Source: an uncultured Flavobacteriales bacterium (GTDB lineage Bacteria > Bacteroidota > Bacteroidia > Flavobacteriales > Crocinitomicaceae). Taken from it: a stretch of DNA of 64,000 bases. This document shows, in pieces, positions 1-6,328 of the stretch. Position 1 is the stretch's first letter. Each line of letters begins with the position of its first letter. Both the position numbers and the translations under genes were made by a program. Under the pieces are notes generated by a model that did not search any database, had not been told where the DNA came from, and saw only the letters and a list, made by a program, of their open reading frames with translations. The stretch is taken from contig CAMLFH010000001.1 of the NCBI GenBank assembly GCA_946479285.1, positions 399,110 through 463,109 of the forward strand, given 5' to 3'.

Positions 1-282
1 CCACTGGATCGGAGTTTAAACAAGGAGGAATTCAATGATTCCCGCAAAGCGGCCAGTATTTATCCGAACCCGACCTTTGACGGTACTTTTTCTTTGAAAG
101 TTGATCCGGAAGTGCTAATTTCAGCTATCCGGATCTATAATATGTTTGGTGTTTTGATCAGTGAAACTAACCAGATGGAAGTAGTTGAATATCATCACCG
201 TTCCACATTAAAAACGGGGACTTACCTGATACAGGTATCTGTGGGCTCAAAAATTGAAACACATAAATTGATCGTATTATGA
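1..282 (+). CDS. T9SS type A sorting-domain protein, C-terminal end only (partial)
   Basis: The reading frame is open from the first base, so the gene begins before the window and only the last 93 residues are visible. They contain the hallmarks of a type IX secretion type A C-terminal sorting domain: SIYPNPTFDGTFSL near residue 19, then IRIYNMFGVLI, then TGTYLIQV and a terminal KLIVL. Proteins with this tail are known to be exported across the outer membrane by the Por/T9SS machinery and usually lose the tail at the surface. The function of the missing passenger cannot be told. The stop codon overlaps the next start (ATGA at 279-282), so it is probably cotranscribed with the lipoprotein array. 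Confidence 0.85.
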   Translation, partial: PLDRSLNKEEFNDSRKAASIYPNPTFDGTFSLKVDPEVLISAIRIYNMFGVLISETNQMEVVEYHHRSTLKTGTYLIQVSVGSKIETHKLIVL

Positions 283-932
283 AGCAGTTAGCAATTCTTA
301 GTTTGTTTTTTTTCCTGTTGGGAGGATGCACCAAATTCGGCAAAAATATGACCGTAAAAGGAAGAGTGTTGAACCCGGTTACGGGAGAGGGCATTTCCAA
401 TGTACCTGTTATTATGTATAGGTCAACGCTGGATTATCCCAGCGGTAGGAAAAAAGTAAAAGAAATCACCACGGATTCGGAAGGGTATTTTGAAATCAAT
501 AAAGCAAGCCTTTCTAAATGTTACCTCGTGTGTAATGTCACGGAAGTTGGAGACTATTACCCGATAGGTTGGGAGAAAAAGGACAACGTTCCGTTATTTG
601 ATGCATTTACAATAAGTATCAAAAAGGGGAAAACAATGCGTGCAGATTATTATGCTATGCCTTATGGCAATTATAAAATAATTATCAATAATATTAATTG
701 TCAGGGGCCAAATGATACTATTATAATTAATCAAAGTAACCAAGCTAACTCTTTTTTGGATAATGATTGGATTCTGACAGGTTGTAGTGGATATAGCTCT
801 AGTTTTTCCAAAGTTCCAATGGGAATGGTTAATACCCACTATACAGTTATAAGAAACGGAATTTCAACTGAGTATGATGTTAATTTTGAGATCCTCCCCA
901 ATCAGGATAATATTCAAACAATCAATTATTAA
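279..932 (+). CDS. Tandem paralogous lipoprotein 1 of 5, carboxypeptidase-regulatory-like domain
   Basis: 217 residues. A hydrophobic signal ends in LLGGC, giving a lipobox with Cys17, so this should be a lipoprotein. Directly after the cysteine comes TKFGKN, identical in all five members of the array. Residues about 24-75 (VKGRVLNPVTGEGISNVPV, then TTDSEGYFEI) resemble the beta-sandwich carboxypeptidase-regulatory/Cna-B fold. A second domain from about residue 125 has NINCQGPNDTIII and ends in INY. It is the most diverged member in the N-terminal half but close to member 2 in the C-terminal half. Its start overlaps the upstream stop by 4 nt, and its stop overlaps the next start by 1 nt. The function is unknown. 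There is no acidic pair after the cysteine, so surface display by the usual Bacteroidota lipoprotein export signal is not supported. Confidence 0.85.
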   Translation: MKQLAILSLFFFLLGGCTKFGKNMTVKGRVLNPVTGEGISNVPVIMYRSTLDYPSGRKKVKEITTDSEGYFEINKASLSKCYLVCNVTEVGDYYPIGWEKKDNVPLFDAFTISIKKGKTMRADYYAMPYGNYKIIINNINCQGPNDTIIINQSNQANSFLDNDWILTGCSGYSSSFSKVPMGMVNTHYTVIRNGISTEYDVNFEILPNQDNIQTINY

Positions 933-1880
933 TGAGGTTTTTGATATCATTTTTCATACTTACTACAATTATTTCCTGCACCAAATTCGGTAAGAACGTG
1001 ACTGTAAAGGGTCGTGTCATGAATCCGGTAACAGGCGCAGGAATAGAAGGAGCGGAAGTGAAATTATTAAAAGTAGTTGGCGGCTACGATTCCAATTATA
1101 AGACTATCAAATCAGTAACCACAGATGCTTCGGGCGCTTTTGAATTGGACAAATACACTTGGACAAAACCAGTGGCGAGGTGTGAAGTAGGGGATTTGTA
1201 TAAACTAGGCTGGACGAAAGATGGAGGTCAGACTTTCATCGACAACTTCGAATTGGAAGTGAAGAAAGGAAAAGTTATAAACGCGGATTTTTATGCAGTT
1301 CCCTATGGAAACTATAAAATAGTGGTAAATAATATCAATTGCCAAGGATTAAATGATACTATAATAATCAGAAGAACTAATCAACTTGAGTCGTTCTTAG
1401 CGATTGATTGGATTTTGACAGGTTGTGGTGGATATAATTCTAGTTTTTCACAAGCTCCAATGGGCACAGTTTATACTCATTACACGGTAATTAGAAATGG
1501 AATTTCAACTGAGTATGATGTTAATTTTGAGATCCTCCCCAATCAGGATAATATTCAAACAATCAATTATTAATGAGGTTTTTGATATCATTTTTCATAC
1601 TTACTACAATTATTTCCTGCACCAAATTCGGTAAGAACGTGACTGTAAAGGGTCGTGTCATGAATCCGGTAACAGGCGCAGGAATAGAAGGAGCGGAAGT
1701 GAAATTATTAAAAGTAGTTGGCGGCTACGATTCCAATTATAAGACTATCAAATCAGTAACCACAGATGCTTCGGGCGCTTTTGAATTGGACAAATACACT
1801 TGGACAAAACCAGTGGCGAGGTGTGAAGTAGGGGATTTGTATAAACTAGGCTGGACGAAAGATGGAGGTCAGACTTTCAT
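858..1880 (+). repeat. Tandem 382-bp perfect direct repeat (858-1239 and 1499-1880)
   Basis: Bases 858-1239 recur at 1499-1880 with an offset of 641 and no mismatch that I could find. The flanks break at 857/1498 (c versus t) and 1240/1881 (c versus t). The block covers the last 75 bases of members 1 and 2 and the first 308 bases of members 2 and 3. It is a head-to-tail duplication or a gene-conversion tract inside the lipoprotein array. Confidence 0.92.
932..1573 (+). CDS. Tandem paralogous lipoprotein 2 of 5 (mosaic copy)
   Basis: 213 residues with a lipobox ending TIISC (Cys16), then TKFGKN. The first domain reads VKGRVMNPVTGAGIEGAEV followed by TTDASGAFELDKY. The second domain from about residue 125 resembles member 1 (NNINCQG, DWILTGC, HYTVIRNGISTEYD, terminal INY). 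The gene is a mosaic at DNA level. Its first 308 bases are identical to the start of member 3, and its last 75 bases are identical to the end of member 1. Start and stop overlap the neighbours as TAATG, so translation is probably coupled. The role is unknown; a periplasmic or surface beta-sandwich lipoprotein is the most that can be inferred. Confidence 0.85.
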   Translation: MRFLISFFILTTIISCTKFGKNVTVKGRVMNPVTGAGIEGAEVKLLKVVGGYDSNYKTIKSVTTDASGAFELDKYTWTKPVARCEVGDLYKLGWTKDGGQTFIDNFELEVKKGKVINADFYAVPYGNYKIVVNNINCQGLNDTIIIRRTNQLESFLAIDWILTGCGGYNSSFSQAPMGTVYTHYTVIRNGISTEYDVNFEILPNQDNIQTINY

Positions 1881-2220
1881 TGATAATTTCGAATTGGAAG
1901 TCAAAAAAGGAAAGGTTATAACCGCTGATTTTTATGTATTGCCCTACGGCGAATTAAAAATCAGCATTCACAATATTAATTGCCAAGGTCCGAATGATAC
2001 GTTAATCTATAAGAGAAATTATGTTTCGTTAAGTGGAATTTCAGTATTTCAACCATTTACTTTAATGGGCTGCTATGATAATGATGGTGCTTTTGCTAAA
2101 GTTCCTAGCGGAGATTACTTGGTAGAATGGACAGTCATAAGAAATGGTATCAGCAATTCTTACTCACATTTGGTGACTGTTCCCGGAAATGGGCAAGCAG
2201 TATATAGTATTGATTATTAG
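1573..2220 (+). CDS. Tandem paralogous lipoprotein 3 of 5
   Basis: 215 residues with a lipobox TIISC (Cys16) and the family TKFGKN motif. About the first 114 residues are the same as in member 2, the first 308 bases being identical in DNA. The sequence then departs into its own C-terminal domain (ELKISIHNINCQGPNDTLI, terminal SIDY), which keeps the pattern of a short NxxC strand, a PSGDY turn and a VIRNGIS strand. This constant N-terminal / variable C-terminal split is what makes the family notable. The start overlaps the previous stop by 1 nt, and the next gene starts 4 nt after this stop. Function unknown. Confidence 0.85.
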   Translation: MRFLISFFILTTIISCTKFGKNVTVKGRVMNPVTGAGIEGAEVKLLKVVGGYDSNYKTIKSVTTDASGAFELDKYTWTKPVARCEVGDLYKLGWTKDGGQTFIDNFELEVKKGKVITADFYVLPYGELKISIHNINCQGPNDTLIYKRNYVSLSGISVFQPFTLMGCYDNDGAFAKVPSGDYLVEWTVIRNGISNSYSHLVTVPGNGQAVYSIDY

Positions 2221-2224
2221 TGCT

Positions 2225-2878
2225 ATGCGTTTTGTCTTTTTTATTGGAATATTTCTAGTCCTAGCTTCCTGCACCAAATTCGGTAAAAACGTGACCGTAA
2301 AGGGTCGTGTCATGAACCCGGTCACCGGCGCAGGAATTGAAGGAGCAGAAGTGAAATTATTGAAAATAGTTGGCGGCTACGATTCCAATTACAAGACGAT
2401 TAAATCTGCAACTACGGACGCTTCGGGGAATTTTGAATTGGACAAATATACCTGGACTAAACCAGTGGTGAGGTGTGAAGTAGGGGACTTATATAGATTA
2501 GGCTGGACAAAAGATGGAGGTCAGACTTTCATCGACAACTTCGAATTGGAAGTGAAGAAGGGAAAATTAATCAATGCTGATTTTTACGCAGTACCATATG
2601 GAAACATTTCAATTAATATCAAAAATGTATCATGTTTTAATTCCTTTGATAACATCAAGTTATATTTTGATGGGGGACCTTATGATTCAAGGATATTTAA
2701 TCCAGGGTTAATGACATCATTGGACGGATGTGTTGATATTCCGGGCTCTCCGGTCAAAGGTTCTATGGGATATAAGTATTTCCATTGGGAAGTAACTAAA
2801 AATTCGGTTACTACAACTTACTATGATACTGTATTTGTTGGGGAGGGACAAACTGCCATTTTGGATATTAATTATTAG
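2225..2878 (+). CDS. Tandem paralogous lipoprotein 4 of 5
   Basis: 217 residues from the ATG at 2225, chosen because it places a clean signal peptide and lipobox (LVLASC, Cys16) at the N-terminus. An in-frame ATG at 2189 would add 12 residues and overlap the previous gene. The first domain is near identical to members 2 and 3 (VKGRVMNPVTGAGIEGAEV). The C-terminal domain is distinct (NISINIKNVSCFNSFDNIKL, ending LDINY) but keeps the same strand rhythm and the closing NY. DNA differs from members 2 and 3 by scattered, largely silent changes, so this copy is older than the 2/3 duplication. Function unknown. Confidence 0.85.
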   Translation: MRFVFFIGIFLVLASCTKFGKNVTVKGRVMNPVTGAGIEGAEVKLLKIVGGYDSNYKTIKSATTDASGNFELDKYTWTKPVVRCEVGDLYRLGWTKDGGQTFIDNFELEVKKGKLINADFYAVPYGNISINIKNVSCFNSFDNIKLYFDGGPYDSRIFNPGLMTSLDGCVDIPGSPVKGSMGYKYFHWEVTKNSVTTTYYDTVFVGEGQTAILDINY

Positions 2879-2880
2879 TG

Positions 2881-3537
2881 ATGGGGAGGATTAAAATAAT
2901 TTTTCTTCTTATTTGTTTTTCAACTGCTCCCTGCACCAAATTCGGAAAAAACATGACCGTAAAAGGTCGTGTGATGAACCCAGTTACTGGTGAAGGAATT
3001 GAAGGTGCAGAAGTAAAGTTATTGAAAATAGTTGGTAGCTATGATTCCAATTACAAGACCATAAAGTCGGCAATTACAGATGCTTCCGGTAATTTTGAGT
3101 TGGACAAATACACTTGGTCTTCACCGGTTGTGCGCTGTGAAACAGGTGATTTGTATCAATTGGGTTGGACAAAAGATGGAGGACAAACGTTTATCGATAA
3201 CTTCGAATTGGAGGTAAAGAAAGGAAAGACTACGAATGCTGATTTTTATGTAGTCCCTTATGGTAATTTGATCTTAAATATCCAAAATGTAAACTGTGGT
3301 GGTTCTGGAGATACAATGTACTTCCGCAAAAAATGGTTAGGATTTACAGATTTCGAGGGATCATATTCAACTCCAAGAACTGGTTGTTATTCATATACAA
3401 GCCCCTCTGCGTTCCAAGTTCCAATGGGAACTTATGTTTATGAAATGAAAGTTATTCGTTCTGGTATAACTAGTTATGTTTATGGTACAATAGTTGTTCC
3501 GGAAACTGGCGTCGTAACAATTAACATTGATTATTAG
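2881..3537 (+). CDS. Tandem paralogous lipoprotein 5 of 5, atypical lipobox
   Basis: 218 residues from the ATG at 2881. A GTG at 2878 overlapping the previous stop is an alternative start. The signal ends FSTAPC (Cys18), with proline just before the cysteine, a poor fit to the usual lipobox, although TKFGKN follows exactly as in the other copies. The first domain is conserved (VKGRVMNPVTGEGIEGAEV). The C-terminal domain is unique (NLILNIQNVNCGGSGDTMYF, PMGTYVYEMKVIRSGI, terminal NIDY). It closes the array. About 100 bp without a gene follow before the next pair of envelope proteins. Lipidation of this member is uncertain; function unknown. Confidence 0.8.
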   Translation: MGRIKIIFLLICFSTAPCTKFGKNMTVKGRVMNPVTGEGIEGAEVKLLKIVGSYDSNYKTIKSAITDASGNFELDKYTWSSPVVRCETGDLYQLGWTKDGGQTFIDNFELEVKKGKTTNADFYVVPYGNLILNIQNVNCGGSGDTMYFRKKWLGFTDFEGSYSTPRTGCYSYTSPSAFQVPMGTYVYEMKVIRSGITSYVYGTIVVPETGVVTINIDY

Positions 3538-3639
3538 TTTGTATTATTGTATTGTTGACTCATACAGGTAGTTTTCAAGTACGGAAAATCGCAACTCGAA
3601 GACGGAATTGTTTTCTCAAGTTTGCAGAAACAAATTGAA

Positions 3640-4191
3640 ATGAAAACTTCACTTATCGCCTTATCATTCTTATTAGTAGTATTTTCTGCACCATGTCGTG
3701 CTTCCGAACCGGTCGATTCTATTCCGTCCAAATCAATGGCAGGTGACAGCACAGCTTCTGTTTCCAAGAAGGATTTTGAACTGCAGGGTACATTCGACAC
3801 CTTTTTTGTAGGAGCCCGAATCAATTACACCCAAGGGAAATACGGATTCCTGGGTTGCTCCGGAACATTCATGTGGCATGAAGTGGGATATGTACTTGAA
3901 TCGCATCTTGGATTTTCCGCAGGGATGGATTTCCGCTTGACCAAATCCGTGGTGTACGCTCCCAAATTCACTTTTGAGTACCGCTATCTGATTGGAATTG
4001 TAAGAGTAGGGTATCACTATTTCACCGATTTCAAATCTGATTTTGAACACCGGATCTCTGCCGAAATCGGAATTTCCCTTCTAAGCTTTTTAGACATCAC
4101 CTATCTGCATTCCTTCGGATCTTCCAGGAATCCTTTCCAACTGGGGTCGAATTACCTGAATGTTACTGCAACCATTCCTTTAAATATCTAG
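3640..4191 (+). CDS. Putative outer-membrane barrel-like protein, first of a tandem pair
   Basis: 183 residues from the ATG at 3640, which gives a signal peptide (MKTSLIALSFLLVVFSAPCRA). The mature part alternates hydrophobic and polar residues and is rich in aromatic and glycine residues (GARINYTQGKYGFLG, FEYRYLIGIVRVGYHYF, RISAEIGISLLSF), as in small outer-membrane beta-barrels. About half the residues match the next gene, including NPFxLGSxYxN near the end, so the two are tandem duplicates. No named family was recognised. It may be envelope machinery working with the lipoproteins just upstream; this rests only on proximity. Confidence 0.7.
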   Translation: MKTSLIALSFLLVVFSAPCRASEPVDSIPSKSMAGDSTASVSKKDFELQGTFDTFFVGARINYTQGKYGFLGCSGTFMWHEVGYVLESHLGFSAGMDFRLTKSVVYAPKFTFEYRYLIGIVRVGYHYFTDFKSDFEHRISAEIGISLLSFLDITYLHSFGSSRNPFQLGSNYLNVTATIPLNI

Positions 4192-4196
4192 CCCAA

Positions 4197-4703
4197 ATGA
4201 AAGTAACTGTCCTCTTAATCATACTTCTTCTTAGCTCTGTTTCATTTGCACAAGAAAAAAAACGGTTTTCATTAAAAGAAGAGTTCGGAGTAGATCTTGA
4301 TGAACTCAATGCTGGTCCGCGGATCAATTATATGCAGGGAAAAGACGGATTCCTGGGACTGGCTTTTCAGGTGGGATGGCATGAGACGCAATATGTTCCT
4401 GAAAAACACTTTGGATTTGCTGTTGGCTCGGATTTCAAGTTTTCCCGCAATTTTCTAATGGCTCCTAAAGTAGTATTGGAATACCGGTATTATGTCGGAA
4501 TTATTCGTTTGGGCTACCTGTGCTACACAAACTTCGGGCGGAATGTTGACAACCGTTTGTCTGCGGAGATCGGATTTTCATTTCTGAGTATTGCAGAACT
4601 TTCTTATGTCCATACGTTCGGATTTTCTGCTAATCCCTTCAATTTGGGTAGCGATTATTTTAATTTCACAATCAGTATTCCTGTGATTATGAAGACACTT
4701 TAA
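4197..4703 (+). CDS. Putative outer-membrane barrel-like protein, second of a tandem pair
   Basis: 168 residues, starting 5 nt after the previous stop. A short signal peptide ends SVSFAQ. The mature sequence is a clear paralog of the upstream gene (INYMQGKDGFLG, LEYRYYVGIIRLGYLCYTNF, RLSAEIGFSFLS, NPFNLGSDYFNF) with the same barrel-like strand pattern. It lacks the roughly 20-residue Ser/Asp-rich stretch that the first copy has after its signal peptide. Function unknown; probably cotranscribed with its partner. A strong hairpin follows at 4706-4750. Confidence 0.7.
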   Translation: MKVTVLLIILLLSSVSFAQEKKRFSLKEEFGVDLDELNAGPRINYMQGKDGFLGLAFQVGWHETQYVPEKHFGFAVGSDFKFSRNFLMAPKVVLEYRYYVGIIRLGYLCYTNFGRNVDNRLSAEIGFSFLSIAELSYVHTFGFSANPFNLGSDYFNFTISIPVIMKTL

Positions 4704-4705
4704 CG

Positions 4706-4750
4706 GCAAAAGGATCTTTTAACATTTTCTTTCCCGAAAGATTCCTTTGC
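4706..4750 (+). terminator. Hairpin after the barrel pair
   Basis: Arms 4706-4719 and 4737-4750 form a 14-pair stem with one mismatch and one wobble, around a 17-nt loop. There is no clear T-run after it, so it may be a transcript end or an RNA-processing hairpin. Confidence 0.4.
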
Positions 4751-4843
4751 TGTCAAATCTCATCAACAACCCGATATCGTCGCCCGACAAATCCTTTTCT
4801 TCGACCAACGGTTTTACTGGGTTTTAAACTTATTTACCGGGTA

Positions 4844-4862
4844 ATTTAGATTGAATCTAAAT
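4844..4862. promoter_or_regulatory. Perfect palindrome upstream of the nuo operon, candidate operator
   Basis: ATTTAGATT-G-AATCTAAAT is a perfect inverted repeat with 9-bp arms. It lies about 35 bp before the putative -7 box of nuoA. Placement just above a promoter fits a dimeric regulator site; which regulator is unknown. Confidence 0.4.
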
Positions 4863-4877
4863 AGAATTTTTCGCCTT

Positions 4878-4905
4878 TTTGTCTTGTTAAAAAGTATTAA
4901 ATTCG
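4878..4905 (+). promoter_or_regulatory. Putative nuo promoter
   Basis: TTTG at 4878-4881 and TAAATTCG at 4898-4905 resemble the Bacteroidota -33/-7 pair (TTTG and TAnnTTTG). The -7 box has one mismatch and the 16-bp spacing is shorter than usual. The nuoA start follows 22 nt later. Confidence 0.35.
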
Positions 4906-4927
4906 CCTGTCTTAAAACTTAGAGATT

Positions 4928-5293
4928 ATGTCTTCTGCAGAAGATTACTTACCGATATTGCTCCAGGCAGGTGTTGCCCTGGGCTTTGTGATACTTGTTT
5001 TAGTTGTGGCTCCCATGTTGGGACCAAGATTAAAGGGTAAAAAGAAAGATGCCAACTGGGAATGTGGTATTGAAGAAGTTGGAAACGCTCGCTTTCCAAT
5101 CTCCATTCGTTATTTGTTAACTGCAATTTTGTTCGTATTGTTCGATGTAGAGGTAATCTTCTTCTATCCGTACGCTGTGAATTTCCATTTCTTAAAAATG
5201 GATGGCTTGATAGCAGTAGTCATTTTCGTAGCATTCTTCCTGACAGGGTTTTTCTACGTACTTAAAAAAGGCGCTTTAGAATGGGAAAAGTAG
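4928..5293 (+). CDS. nuoA: NADH-quinone oxidoreductase subunit A
   Basis: 121 residues, a small membrane subunit of respiratory complex I. Three hydrophobic segments are visible (residues about 9-29, 67-87 and 92-112). The family motif WECGIEEVGNARFPISIRY lies between the first two, including the loop cysteine, and FDVEVIFFYPYAV follows. Length is normal for NuoA. It opens the fourteen-gene nuoA-N operon that supplies electrons from NADH to menaquinone while exporting protons. Its last 13 bases overlap nuoB, implying coupled translation. Confidence 0.97.
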   Translation: MSSAEDYLPILLQAGVALGFVILVLVVAPMLGPRLKGKKKDANWECGIEEVGNARFPISIRYLLTAILFVLFDVEVIFFYPYAVNFHFLKMDGLIAVVIFVAFFLTGFFYVLKKGALEWEK

Positions 5294-5829
5294 AAATCAT
5301 CAATGGTGTAGAAACCATTAACGGAGAAGGTTTCCAATTGACCTTGCTTGACAAAGTAATTGGAGCTGCTCGTGCTAATTCCGTTTGGCCTTTGCCATTC
5401 GCTACCTCTTGTTGTGGTATCGAGTACATGGGTACAATGGGAAGTAACTATGACGTTGCACGTTTCGGAATGGAACGTATGTCCTTTTCTCCACGCCAGG
5501 CAGATTTATTGATTGTTGCCGGTACAATCTCCAAAAAATTAGCTCCGATCCTCAAGCAGGTTTACGAACAAATGGCTGAGCCGAAATGGGTTTTGTCTGT
5601 TGGTGCATGTGCCTGTTCGGGTGGAATTTTTGATACTTACTCCGTGTTGCAGGGAATTGACCGTGTGATTCCGGTAGACGTTTACGTTCCGGGATGTCCG
5701 CCAAGACCCGAGCAGATCATTGAAGGGTGTATGAATATTCACCGCCTGGTAAAGAGCGAATCACTGCGCCGCCGTTATTCCGATGAATACAAGCATTTGT
5801 TGAAGAAATACGATTTGAACGATGAGTAA
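5281..5829 (+). CDS. nuoB: NADH-quinone oxidoreductase subunit B
   Basis: 182 residues. NuoB carries the N2 4Fe-4S cluster that hands electrons to the quinone. The ligands are all present: tandem Cys44-Cys45 (ATSCCGIEYMG), Cys110 (SVGACACSGG) and Cys139 (VPGCPPRPEQ), with the same spacings as in the Escherichia coli subunit. The gene overlaps nuoA by 13 nt and nuoC by 8 nt. Soluble, at the junction between the peripheral arm and the membrane arm. Confidence 0.98.
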   Translation: MGKVEIINGVETINGEGFQLTLLDKVIGAARANSVWPLPFATSCCGIEYMGTMGSNYDVARFGMERMSFSPRQADLLIVAGTISKKLAPILKQVYEQMAEPKWVLSVGACACSGGIFDTYSVLQGIDRVIPVDVYVPGCPPRPEQIIEGCMNIHRLVKSESLRRRYSDEYKHLLKKYDLNDE

Positions 5830-6328
5830 TTTGACAAACGAAGCGGTATTAAGCCGTATCCAGGGAAAATTTGGAGAAGCTGTTCGCAATTCCGAAGAAC
5901 CTTACGGAATGCTGACAATCGAAATTCAGGCGGATAAAGCTCACGACCTGATTTCCTGGCTGAAAACAGATGAAGTGCTGAAAGTATCCTTTTTGACTTT
6001 GATCGGGGCAACTCATTTTCCAAACGATAAAGGACGCGAGATTTGTGTAAACTACCACCTTCACTCCATGGTGAATAATGTACGTTTGCGCGTTCGTGCA
6101 TTTCTTCCAATCGAAAATCCAAACATTCAGTCCCTTACGGATATTTATGTGGGTGCTGATTGGCAGGAGCGTGAAACATACGATTTCTTCGGAGTGATTT
6201 TCGAAGGACATCCGAATTTAACACGAATCCTGAACGAAGACGATATGGATTACTTCCCAATGCGTAAAGAATACCATTTGGAAGATGCAACAAGAGAAGA
6301 TAAAGACGATCGCTTCTTCGGTCGGTAA
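5822..6328 (+). CDS. nuoC: NADH-quinone oxidoreductase subunit C
   Basis: 168 residues, the 30-kDa-type subunit of the hydrophilic arm. The signature near residue 115 reads YVGADWQERETYDFFGVIF, followed by GHPNLTRIL and FPMRKEYHLED, which is diagnostic. It is a stand-alone gene here, not fused with nuoD as in some enterobacteria. It has an 8-nt overlap with nuoB and a 33-nt gap to nuoD. Confidence 0.97.
   Translation: MSNLTNEAVLSRIQGKFGEAVRNSEEPYGMLTIEIQADKAHDLISWLKTDEVLKVSFLTLIGATHFPNDKGREICVNYHLHSMVNNVRLRVRAFLPIENPNIQSLTDIYVGADWQERETYDFFGVIFEGHPNLTRILNEDDMDYFPMRKEYHLEDATREDKDDRFFGR

What the first reader, a model, noticed from the sequence alone, without database searches (positions are those of the whole stretch)
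279..3537. Array of five lipoproteins with constant N-terminal and variable C-terminal halves
Five adjacent genes code for 213-218-residue lipoproteins that share the post-lipobox TKFGKN and a nearly constant carboxypeptidase-regulatory-like domain, then diverge into different second domains that still end in INY/IDY. All are coupled by 1-nt or 4-nt junctions behind a T9SS-secreted protein. A fixed platform with changing tips, in a recombining array, is what one would expect of surface ligands, decoys or recognition modules under diversifying pressure. This is inference; no known system of this layout came to mind. It is the best candidate in the window for an undescribed system.
Basis: partly seen in the sequence, partly recalled or inferred. 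Interest (0 to 1): 0.75.

Follow-up and report, generated by a model that had tools for sequence, protein, structure and literature searches.

The report
Lipase-coupled two-domain lipoprotein array
Five neighbouring bacterial genes make small two-part membrane-anchored proteins whose front half tends to match the exported enzyme encoded just before them and whose back half is drawn from a pool of conserved variants shared between genomes, a mix-and-match layout that may protect the cell from its own or its neighbours' exported lipase.

Summary
The array is real: five lipoprotein genes (213-218 aa) directly after the tail of a T9SS cargo gene. Comparison across Crocinitomicaceae changes the reading. 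The genes belong to an operon X-Y-lipoproteins; Y is a ~960-aa T9SS protein distantly related to PGAP1-type hydrolases. A family lipoprotein follows Y in 33 of 34 Y loci (19 of 20 chosen by Y). Both halves come in types that recombine at the domain boundary. The 'constant' N-half is largely uniform inside an array and tracks Y (core loci r=0.72); the 'variable' C-half belongs to types conserved between genomes and does not clearly track Y (r=0.16). In 18 of 28 core genes the best cross-genome C match is 85-93%, and in 16 of these 18 pairs the N-halves are only 37-58%. Both halves are under purifying selection (C dN/dS median 0.09, maximum 0.185), so diversifying tips are not supported. Copy number and C-type set change at the orthologous nuo-linked site. 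Y is broken or absent beside intact lipoproteins at many loci, as expected of immunity genes. Best reading: partner (immunity-like) lipoproteins of a T9SS lipase. Modular evolution is shown; docking, neutralisation and location are inferred. My library searches showed no such system.

The parts
1..282 (+). 3' end of Y, a T9SS-exported protein distantly related to PGAP1-like hydrolases (last 93 aa, with the sorting tail). The rest lies upstream of the window; P0153 (707 aa as predicted, 254,888-bp contig) ends in the same residues.
   Evidence: PF18962 37.6 bits; Y profile 74.1 bits; P0153 ends with the window's residues
279..932 (+). Lipoprotein gene 1 (217 aa); N-half of the STLDYPSG kind, C type C0; anchor Cys codon at 327, C-half from about 645
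   Evidence: 4-nt overlap with Y stop
932..1573 (+). Lipoprotein gene 2 (213 aa); N-half of the GYDSNYK kind, C type C0; anchor Cys codon 977, C-half from about 1286
1573..2220 (+). Lipoprotein gene 3 (215 aa); N-half GYDSNYK kind, C type C1 (present in 7 of 7 core loci: window, L062, L063, L065, L067, L068, L070); anchor Cys codon 1618, C-half from about 1927
2225..2878 (+). Lipoprotein gene 4 (217 aa; a longer in-frame start at 2189 exists); N-half GYDSNYK kind, C type C2; anchor Cys codon 2270, C-half from about 2579
2881..3537 (+). Lipoprotein gene 5 (218 aa; GTG at 2878 also possible); N-half GYDSNYK kind, C type C4; anchor Cys codon 2932, C-half from about 3241
858..1239 (+). Exact 382-bp repeat, copy 1: last 75 bp of gene 1 plus most of the N-half of gene 2
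   Evidence: offset 641
1499..1880 (+). Exact 382-bp repeat, copy 2: last 75 bp of gene 2 plus most of the N-half of gene 3; trace of a recent exchange or tandem duplication
3622..4703 (+). Two tandem paralogous genes (3622-4191, 4197-4703), then nuo genes from 4928 (nuo label recalled from the sequences): landmark showing that the array site is orthologous to L065 and, by the nuo genes, L070

Best explanation
The array encodes the cognate partner lipoproteins of the T9SS-exported lipase-like protein Y encoded just upstream, in an operon X (tail-fibre-like) - Y - lipoproteins. Shown: operon structure; two domains; both halves exist as types that are exchanged at the domain boundary; the N-half is largely uniform inside an array and co-varies with Y; the C-half comes from a pool of conserved types shared between genomes and does not clearly follow Y; both halves are under purifying selection. 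Suggested: Y is lost more readily than the lipoproteins. Inferred: the N-domain (transthyretin/CnaB-like) docks onto Y; the lipoproteins sit on the inner leaflet of the outer membrane and hold Y harmless while it crosses the periplasm, or when a neighbour's Y arrives (immunity-like, as Tli lipoproteins do for T6SS lipases); the C-domain is a second, exchangeable module with another partner, so that an array offers a Y-matched docking domain in several C-formats. Arrays turn over by tandem duplication, conversion of halves, and displacement of old Y genes.
For: Y-lipoprotein coupling: 34 of 36 Y ORFs of 400 aa or more in the fetched loci, that is 33 of 34 distinct loci; among the 20 loci fetched because of their Y 19 of 20, exception L084; 4-nt overlap by the ORF's first start in 16 of 36, and at some M, V or L codon in 10 more; X directly upstream in 31 of 36. 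Co-occurrence in 399 genomes of the order: Y in 31, lipoprotein in 41, both in 25 (3.2 expected, Fisher p 2e-23). N tracks Y: core 19 loci r=0.72 (0 of 1000 permutations), C r=0.16 (61 of 1000), r(N,C)=0.06, bootstrap of the difference 0.27 to 0.84; all 37 loci 0.89 and 0.49 (both 0 of 1000), partial Y-C given N 0.18; the 9 core loci without contig-length pairing 0.84 (0/1000) and 0.29 (98/1000). The Y segment nearest the array, the sorting tail, correlates least (0.39), the hydrolase and middle segments 0.71-0.76. Y relation to PGAP1-like proteins: pairwise E 9e-9, those relatives hit PF07819 above cut-off; nucleophile-position Ser in 12 of 12, strict GxSxG in 8 of 12. Y broken or gone beside intact lipoproteins: L066, L091, L113, L116, orphan array L070 and others; Y fragments between lipoproteins in L072/L090 and L099. 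Half swaps: F. chungangensis genes 1 and 5 share 330 identical bp from codon 122 on, with N dN 0.49; genes 6 and 7 C dS 0.04 with N dN 0.58. Residues after the cysteine mostly basic against acidic surface-export signals.
Against: The half that tracks Y (N) is largely uniform inside an array, so extra copies do not widen recognition of other Ys through N; C types, the part that differs, do not track Y, so the reason for many copies stays unexplained. N is not uniform everywhere: all N pairs reach 70% in 12 of 23 arrays, and window gene 1 is at 46-47% to the rest. L084 has X and Y but no family gene in the 1.4 kb downstream. Nothing shows that Y is toxic or active; the window's Y (P0153) and the Ys have no Pfam hydrolase hit, and 4 of 12 Ys lack strict GxSxG. 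Linkage plus within-array conversion could make part of the N-Y correlation; the sorting tail is short, so its low r is partly noise. Most loci L062-L081 were fetched because of their lipoproteins, and lipoprotein-only loci because Y was missing, so the coupling and loss counts are not free of selection. The export-signal argument comes from Capnocytophaga, Bacteroides and Flavobacterium and could not be calibrated (no SusD in 10 genomes). Some lipoprotein-only loci may have a Y too diverged for the profile.
Confidence: 0.42

Rival explanations
1. Surface adaptor set: Y is displayed on the cell surface by the T9SS and the lipoproteins are its docking subunits, the N-domain holding Y and the conserved C types binding different substrates or surfaces, like exchangeable binding modules of a multi-enzyme complex.
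For: Explains naturally that N is largely uniform per array and tracks Y while C types are few, conserved across genomes and independent of Y; beta-sandwich C-domain, weak fold hits to Bacteroides adhesins 3up6, 3ufi, 3liu and to a CBM41.
Confidence: 0.27
2. No functional N-Y contact: the arrays are ordinary tandem paralogues; N-halves look alike within an array and match Y only because they are physically linked to it and homogenised by gene conversion, while C-halves escape conversion.
For: Exact shared tracts of 60-382 bp within arrays; dS of N-halves within L068 and L070 only 0.07-0.27.
Against: Many other within-array N pairs of one kind have dS 0.3-1.8 with dN of 0.012-0.118, so sameness is held by selection and not only by recent copying; correlation with Y does not rise towards the array end of Y; cross-genome N dN/dS median 0.043 (24 pairs).
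Confidence: 0.18
3. One reading: surface ligands, decoys or antigens with diversifying tips.
For: Copy number and C-type set vary between genomes at one site.
Against: C dN/dS never above 0.185 in 35 usable of 50 pairs; best cross-genome C match 70% or more in 25 of 28 core genes (54-93% over all 28).
Confidence: 0.06
4. Pilin-like subunits (FimA/Mfa-type or CnaB-type stalk proteins) that polymerise through their beta-sandwich domains.
Against: No pilin family among the Pfam hits at E up to 1 for the five window proteins apart from SpaA-type prealbumin-like domains below cut-off; the fold is common; the only neighbours shared by more than five of 22 sequences are X and Y.
Confidence: 0.07

Closest known systems
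T6SS lipase effector-immunity pairs (Tle/Tli), e.g. Tle1 with Tli1a and Tli1b (PMC13133936, start of abstract and passages; Tle3/Tli3 PMC9860674, start of abstract in a listing)
   Same: Exported lipase-like protein with one or several lipoprotein partner genes next to it
   Different: T9SS instead of T6SS; Y only distantly related to PGAP1-like hydrolases; lipoproteins of two beta-sandwich domains with exchangeable halves; toxicity and neutralisation not shown
TANFOR polymorphic toxins of Bacteroidetes (PMC7073777, outline and section 9 read)
   Same: Bacteroidetes toxin-immunity loci speculated to use the T9SS and often beside CTD-bearing T9SS substrates
   Different: Large proteins with an N-terminal TANFOR domain; here Y carries the CTD itself; no lipoprotein array in the parts I read
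DUF3823 lipoproteins (4eiu, 4yok) and similar two-domain accessory lipoproteins
   Same: About 200-240 aa, transthyretin-like first domain; Foldseek E 2.2e-5 for 4eiu, TM 0.34
   Different: No Pfam hit to that family for the window proteins at E up to 1; no SusD match in 10 of 10 genomes tested; coupled to a T9SS protein
FimA/Mfa-type pilin-like adhesins (3up6, 3ufi, 3liu, 3t2l; that these are FimA-like is recalled)
   Same: Lipoproteins of two beta-sandwich domains (recalled); weak C-domain fold match
   Different: No sequence match; shorter; arrays coupled to Y

Membership tests
Lipase effector with immunity lipoproteins (Tle/Tli-like system) | Enzyme gene with lipase catalytic features | tested here: inconclusive
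   Profile and pairwise relation to PF07819-bearing proteins; Ser invariant in 12 of 12, GxSxG strict in 8 of 12, one Asp and one His column also invariant (catalytic role inferred); but no Pfam hydrolase hit in Y itself
Lipase effector with immunity lipoproteins (Tle/Tli-like system) | Signal for export to or beyond the cell envelope | tested here: met
   T9SS sorting domain TIGR04183, 48.5 and 50.3 bits in two Ys; window tail PF18962 37.6 bits
Lipase effector with immunity lipoproteins (Tle/Tli-like system) | Partner gene adjacent to the effector gene | tested here: met
   33 of 34 distinct Y loci, 19 of 20 of those chosen by Y; exception L084
Lipase effector with immunity lipoproteins (Tle/Tli-like system) | Recognition part of the immunity protein co-varies with the effector | tested here: inconclusive
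   N-half does (r 0.72 core, 0.89 all), C-half does not clearly (0.16, 0.49); linkage not fully excluded
Lipase effector with immunity lipoproteins (Tle/Tli-like system) | Effector toxic to unprotected cells, neutralised by partner | not testable with these tools
   needs expression
Lipase effector with immunity lipoproteins (Tle/Tli-like system) | T6SS delivery | tested here: not met
   Cargo carries a T9SS sorting domain; so it is not a member of the T6SS Tle/Tli family, only like it; T6SS genes were not searched for
Surface-exposed Bacteroidetes lipoproteins | Acidic lipoprotein export signal at +2 to +6 | tested here: inconclusive
   Array proteins mostly have TKFGK or KKKTA-like residues against K-(D/E)2, SDDDD, SDDFE (PMC5080379, passages); signal not calibrated in this family
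CarboxypepD_reg domain (PF13620) | Profile match in the N-half | tested here: inconclusive
   116 of 116 homologues match at E up to 0.1, but of the five window proteins only gene 4 reaches the curated cut-off
DUF3823 accessory lipoproteins | Sequence profile match and SusC/SusD neighbours | tested here: not met
   No such Pfam hit at E up to 1 for the five window proteins; no SusD match in 10 genomes
FimA/Mfa-type pilins | Sequence profile match | tested here: not met
   No FimA/Mfa-type family among hits at E up to 1 for the five proteins
FimA/Mfa-type pilins | Two-domain pilin fold | tested here: inconclusive
   Weak matches only

The most novel reading that the evidence does not exclude
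A two-pool modular partner system on the type IX secretion pathway: every lipoprotein joins an N-domain matched to the array's own exported lipase with a C-domain taken from a library of conserved types shared between species (15 C clusters of three or more members at my threshold), and cells rewrite their repertoire by swapping halves at the domain boundary while old lipase genes are displaced and their partners kept. If C-domains neutralise other agents (foreign lipases or other toxins), this would be a combinatorial immunity array for T9SS weapons, a lipase effector-immunity class of that pathway that I found nowhere in my searches.
Probability: 0.22. Interest if true: 0.8.

Novelty: new variant of a known kind. 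Interest (0 to 1): 0.6.

Why it matters
It ties a family of unnamed Bacteroidetes lipoproteins to a specific T9SS-exported protein and says which half should touch it, giving a direct, cheap binding test. A T9SS role in competition between bacteria has been speculated (PMC7073777, section 9) without an experimental model there; a lipase-like cargo with a dedicated, retained, often tandem set of lipoprotein partners is a good place to look. Domain-level exchange with one half matched to a partner and the other drawn from a conserved pool is also a clean natural case of modular protein evolution.

Tried and rejected
Diversifying selection: rejected between genomes. Immunity specificity carried by the C-half: not supported in the core loci, neither mean nor best C match tracks Y (r 0.16 and 0.23, 61 and 80 of 1000 permutations). 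First gene of the array as the special cognate: first-gene C identity of close Y pairs is often low (25% for L062/L065, 29% for L063/L067), though 70-73% among L064/L085/L091. Fold as a guide to function: full-length and C-domain models are confident (pLDDT 89 and 90), but the hits are a common beta-sandwich and no family stood out for the C-domain. Anti-phage families: none in PADLOC at E 0.01 for six proteins. Plasmid or phage carriage: no match of gene 3's protein in the two collections. RNA family at window 1-6000: none at gathering score. Conserved recombinase beside arrays: only X and Y are shared by more than five of 22 sequences, but flanking genes were not annotated, so local mobile genes are not excluded. 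Solved relatives by sequence: none meaningful for the lipoproteins; for Y only the sorting tail matched. Array-end stubs as an integration device: looked at; they end at different points and two run into what look like T9SS tails, so I read them as deletion scars.

Choices that affect counts: full-length filter (profile start at or before 12, end at or after 205, at most 300 aa); L090 dropped because it repeats L072 (it is); five window duplicates and one 140-aa protein dropped; type thresholds 62% (N) and 58% (C) by single linkage were mine, and N0 chains several kinds together. Only 120 of 278 homologues are listed and usable. In one search ten of the 19 core loci pair a Y and lipoproteins known only as protein records with equal contig length (P0133, P0132, P0136, P0134, P0125, P0129, P0150, P0143, P0148, P0154); the window genes were paired with P0153 by contig and identical tail residues; one search repeats the core test without the ten. 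Not all strong Y hits were fetched (for example G098, G042, G004 contigs were left). Genome draws of 200 and 399 are samples of larger groups, and only a limited number of candidates per genome was scored in them. The pairs listed within arrays are those with N dN below 0.12 or C dN below 0.15.
Full report
WHAT IS THERE. The window opens inside the last 93 codons of a T9SS-exported protein and continues with five lipoprotein genes, 279-3537. Each has a signal peptide, an anchor cysteine followed by TKFGKN, an N-half with weak similarity to PF13620, and a C-half with two conserved cysteines and a terminal INY or IDY. Gene 1 has a different N-half from genes 2-5; genes 1 and 2 share a C type. 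A 382-bp stretch is repeated exactly, 858-1239 and 1499-1880, covering the end of one gene and most of the N-half of the next. No further member was found in the 64 kb by the family profile. No whole genome is held for the window; I take it as Fluviicola-like from its relatives (inference).

RELATIVES. The protein search gave 278 relatives, 120 listed, the named ones mostly from Fluviicola and Brumimicrobium. In 200 genomes of the family 76 have a match at 1e-5, in the genus 6 of 14 at 1e-30.

TWO POOLS OF HALVES. Cutting the proteins at the conserved PYG of the domain boundary, 215 sequences fall into N types and C types that combine widely: C0 occurs with 10 N types and C1 with 9. Window gene 2 and a F. 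taffensis gene are 93% identical in C and 37% in N; window gene 3 and a F. chungangensis gene 91% and 44%. Of 28 core genes, 18 have their best cross-genome C match at 85-93%, and in 16 of these pairs the N-halves are at 37-58% (75 and 87% in the other two). Nineteen of 28 have a C-half closer to a gene of another genome than to any in their own, while 23 have an N-half closest to their own array. In the F. chungangensis array, genes 1 and 5 are identical over 330 bp from codon 122 on and strongly diverged before it; genes 6 and 7 are near-identical in C and strongly diverged in N. So halves are exchanged, with the break at the domain boundary.

SELECTION. Same-C-type pairs between genomes: 50 pairs, 35 with usable dS, dN/dS 0.023-0.185, median 0.090; similar N pairs between genomes: 24, median 0.043. 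Inside arrays, N-halves of one kind have dS from 0.07 to 1.8 with dN up to 0.118, so part of their likeness is recent copying and part is old constraint. Many dS values are high, so single ratios are rough. Diversifying selection is not seen.

OPERON. Two neighbour families are shared by more than five of the 22 sequences first compared (Y in 14, X in 12). X (about 350 aa) has no Pfam or NCBIfam hit in F. chungangensis; by its text it looks tail-fibre-like, a recalled label. Y (about 950-1000 aa) ends in a T9SS sorting domain and is distantly related to PGAP1-like hydrolases, though Pfam finds no hydrolase in Y itself; the serine of the nucleophile position is invariant in the 12 aligned Ys, which are 22-79% identical. 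Y is followed by a family lipoprotein in 33 of 34 loci, 19 of 20 among those fetched by Y. The window's own Y is P0153, 77 and 82% identical to those of F. chungangensis and G014.

N TRACKS Y, C DOES NOT CLEARLY. In 19 core loci the identity of Ys correlates with N identity (r 0.72, 0 of 1000 permutations) and hardly with C identity (r 0.16, 61 of 1000); in all 37 loci 0.89 and 0.49 (both 0 of 1000), the latter falling to 0.18 when N is held constant. The sorting tail of Y, nearest to the array, correlates least (0.39). N is not uniform in every array: all N pairs reach 70% in 12 of 23. This is correlation; docking is inferred.

TURNOVER. At the orthologous site beside the nuo genes the window has Y plus five genes, L065 has X, Y, two genes and a stub, L070 has no X or Y and five genes of mixed N types. 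Y is broken in L066 and L091, absent in L113 although a piece of X remains, and reduced to a remnant in L116; at 18 further loci with full-length lipoproteins and at least 2 kb of upstream sequence no adjacent Y was found (L003, L070, L071, L077, L079, L080, L114, L115, L118-L124, L127, L129, L132; L124 has a distant T9SS tail only). These were picked for lacking Y, so they give no rate. Pieces of Y lie between lipoprotein genes in L072/L090 and L099, and array-end stubs run into what look like T9SS tails in L068 and L114 (by eye). In 399 genomes of the order 16 have lipoproteins without Y and 6 Y without lipoproteins at those cut-offs; two of the six, G009 and G141, do have one by a wider profile, G109 (L084) has none beside Y, and G098, G210, G214 were not looked at. 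Retention of the lipoproteins after loss of Y is what immunity genes do; adaptors serving another protein could do the same.

JUDGEMENT. The modular evolution and the link to Y are well supported; the immunity-like function is my best reading, with the surface-adaptor model behind it. The role of the C-domain is the open question. My searches of open papers (listings, with parts of four papers opened) showed no description of this operon; subscription papers are mostly not in that library.

Noticed in passing
L067 6090-10117 (F. taffensis array 1): Two N kinds (SKLDSKDPLG and QVSWGDPVG) alternate strictly along six genes; with three of each, chance would give an alternating order in one of ten.
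   Followed up: no
L068 6080-6430; L114 around 1305-1499: Array-end stubs: an N-half runs into what looks like a T9SS tail (in frame in L068; in L114 with a stop shortly after the join), probably scars of deletions between a lipoprotein gene and a former T9SS gene.
   Followed up: partly
L067 5887-6090: The stub at the end of one F. taffensis array carries, by eye, the N kind of the genome's other array, suggesting exchange between arrays.
   Followed up: no
L072 2640-3227 and 16827-17561; L099 7502-8089: C-terminal pieces of Y of 195-244 aa lie between intact lipoprotein genes; the 195-aa piece has the same length in two genomes, so it may be kept rather than decaying.
   Followed up: partly
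L062, L064, L065, L068 starts of Y: Y signal peptides (MRKFITGM-like) are nearly the same although L064's Y is only 25-26% identical to the others, hinting that recombination also occurs at the 5' end of Y.
   Followed up: no
window 3622-4191 and 4197-4703: Two tandem paralogues without Pfam hits, perhaps small outer-membrane barrels (guess from the sequence), with a relative at the same place in L065.
   Followed up: no
L084 1-1479: A complete X-Y pair with no family lipoprotein downstream; the one exception among 34 Y loci.
   Followed up: partly
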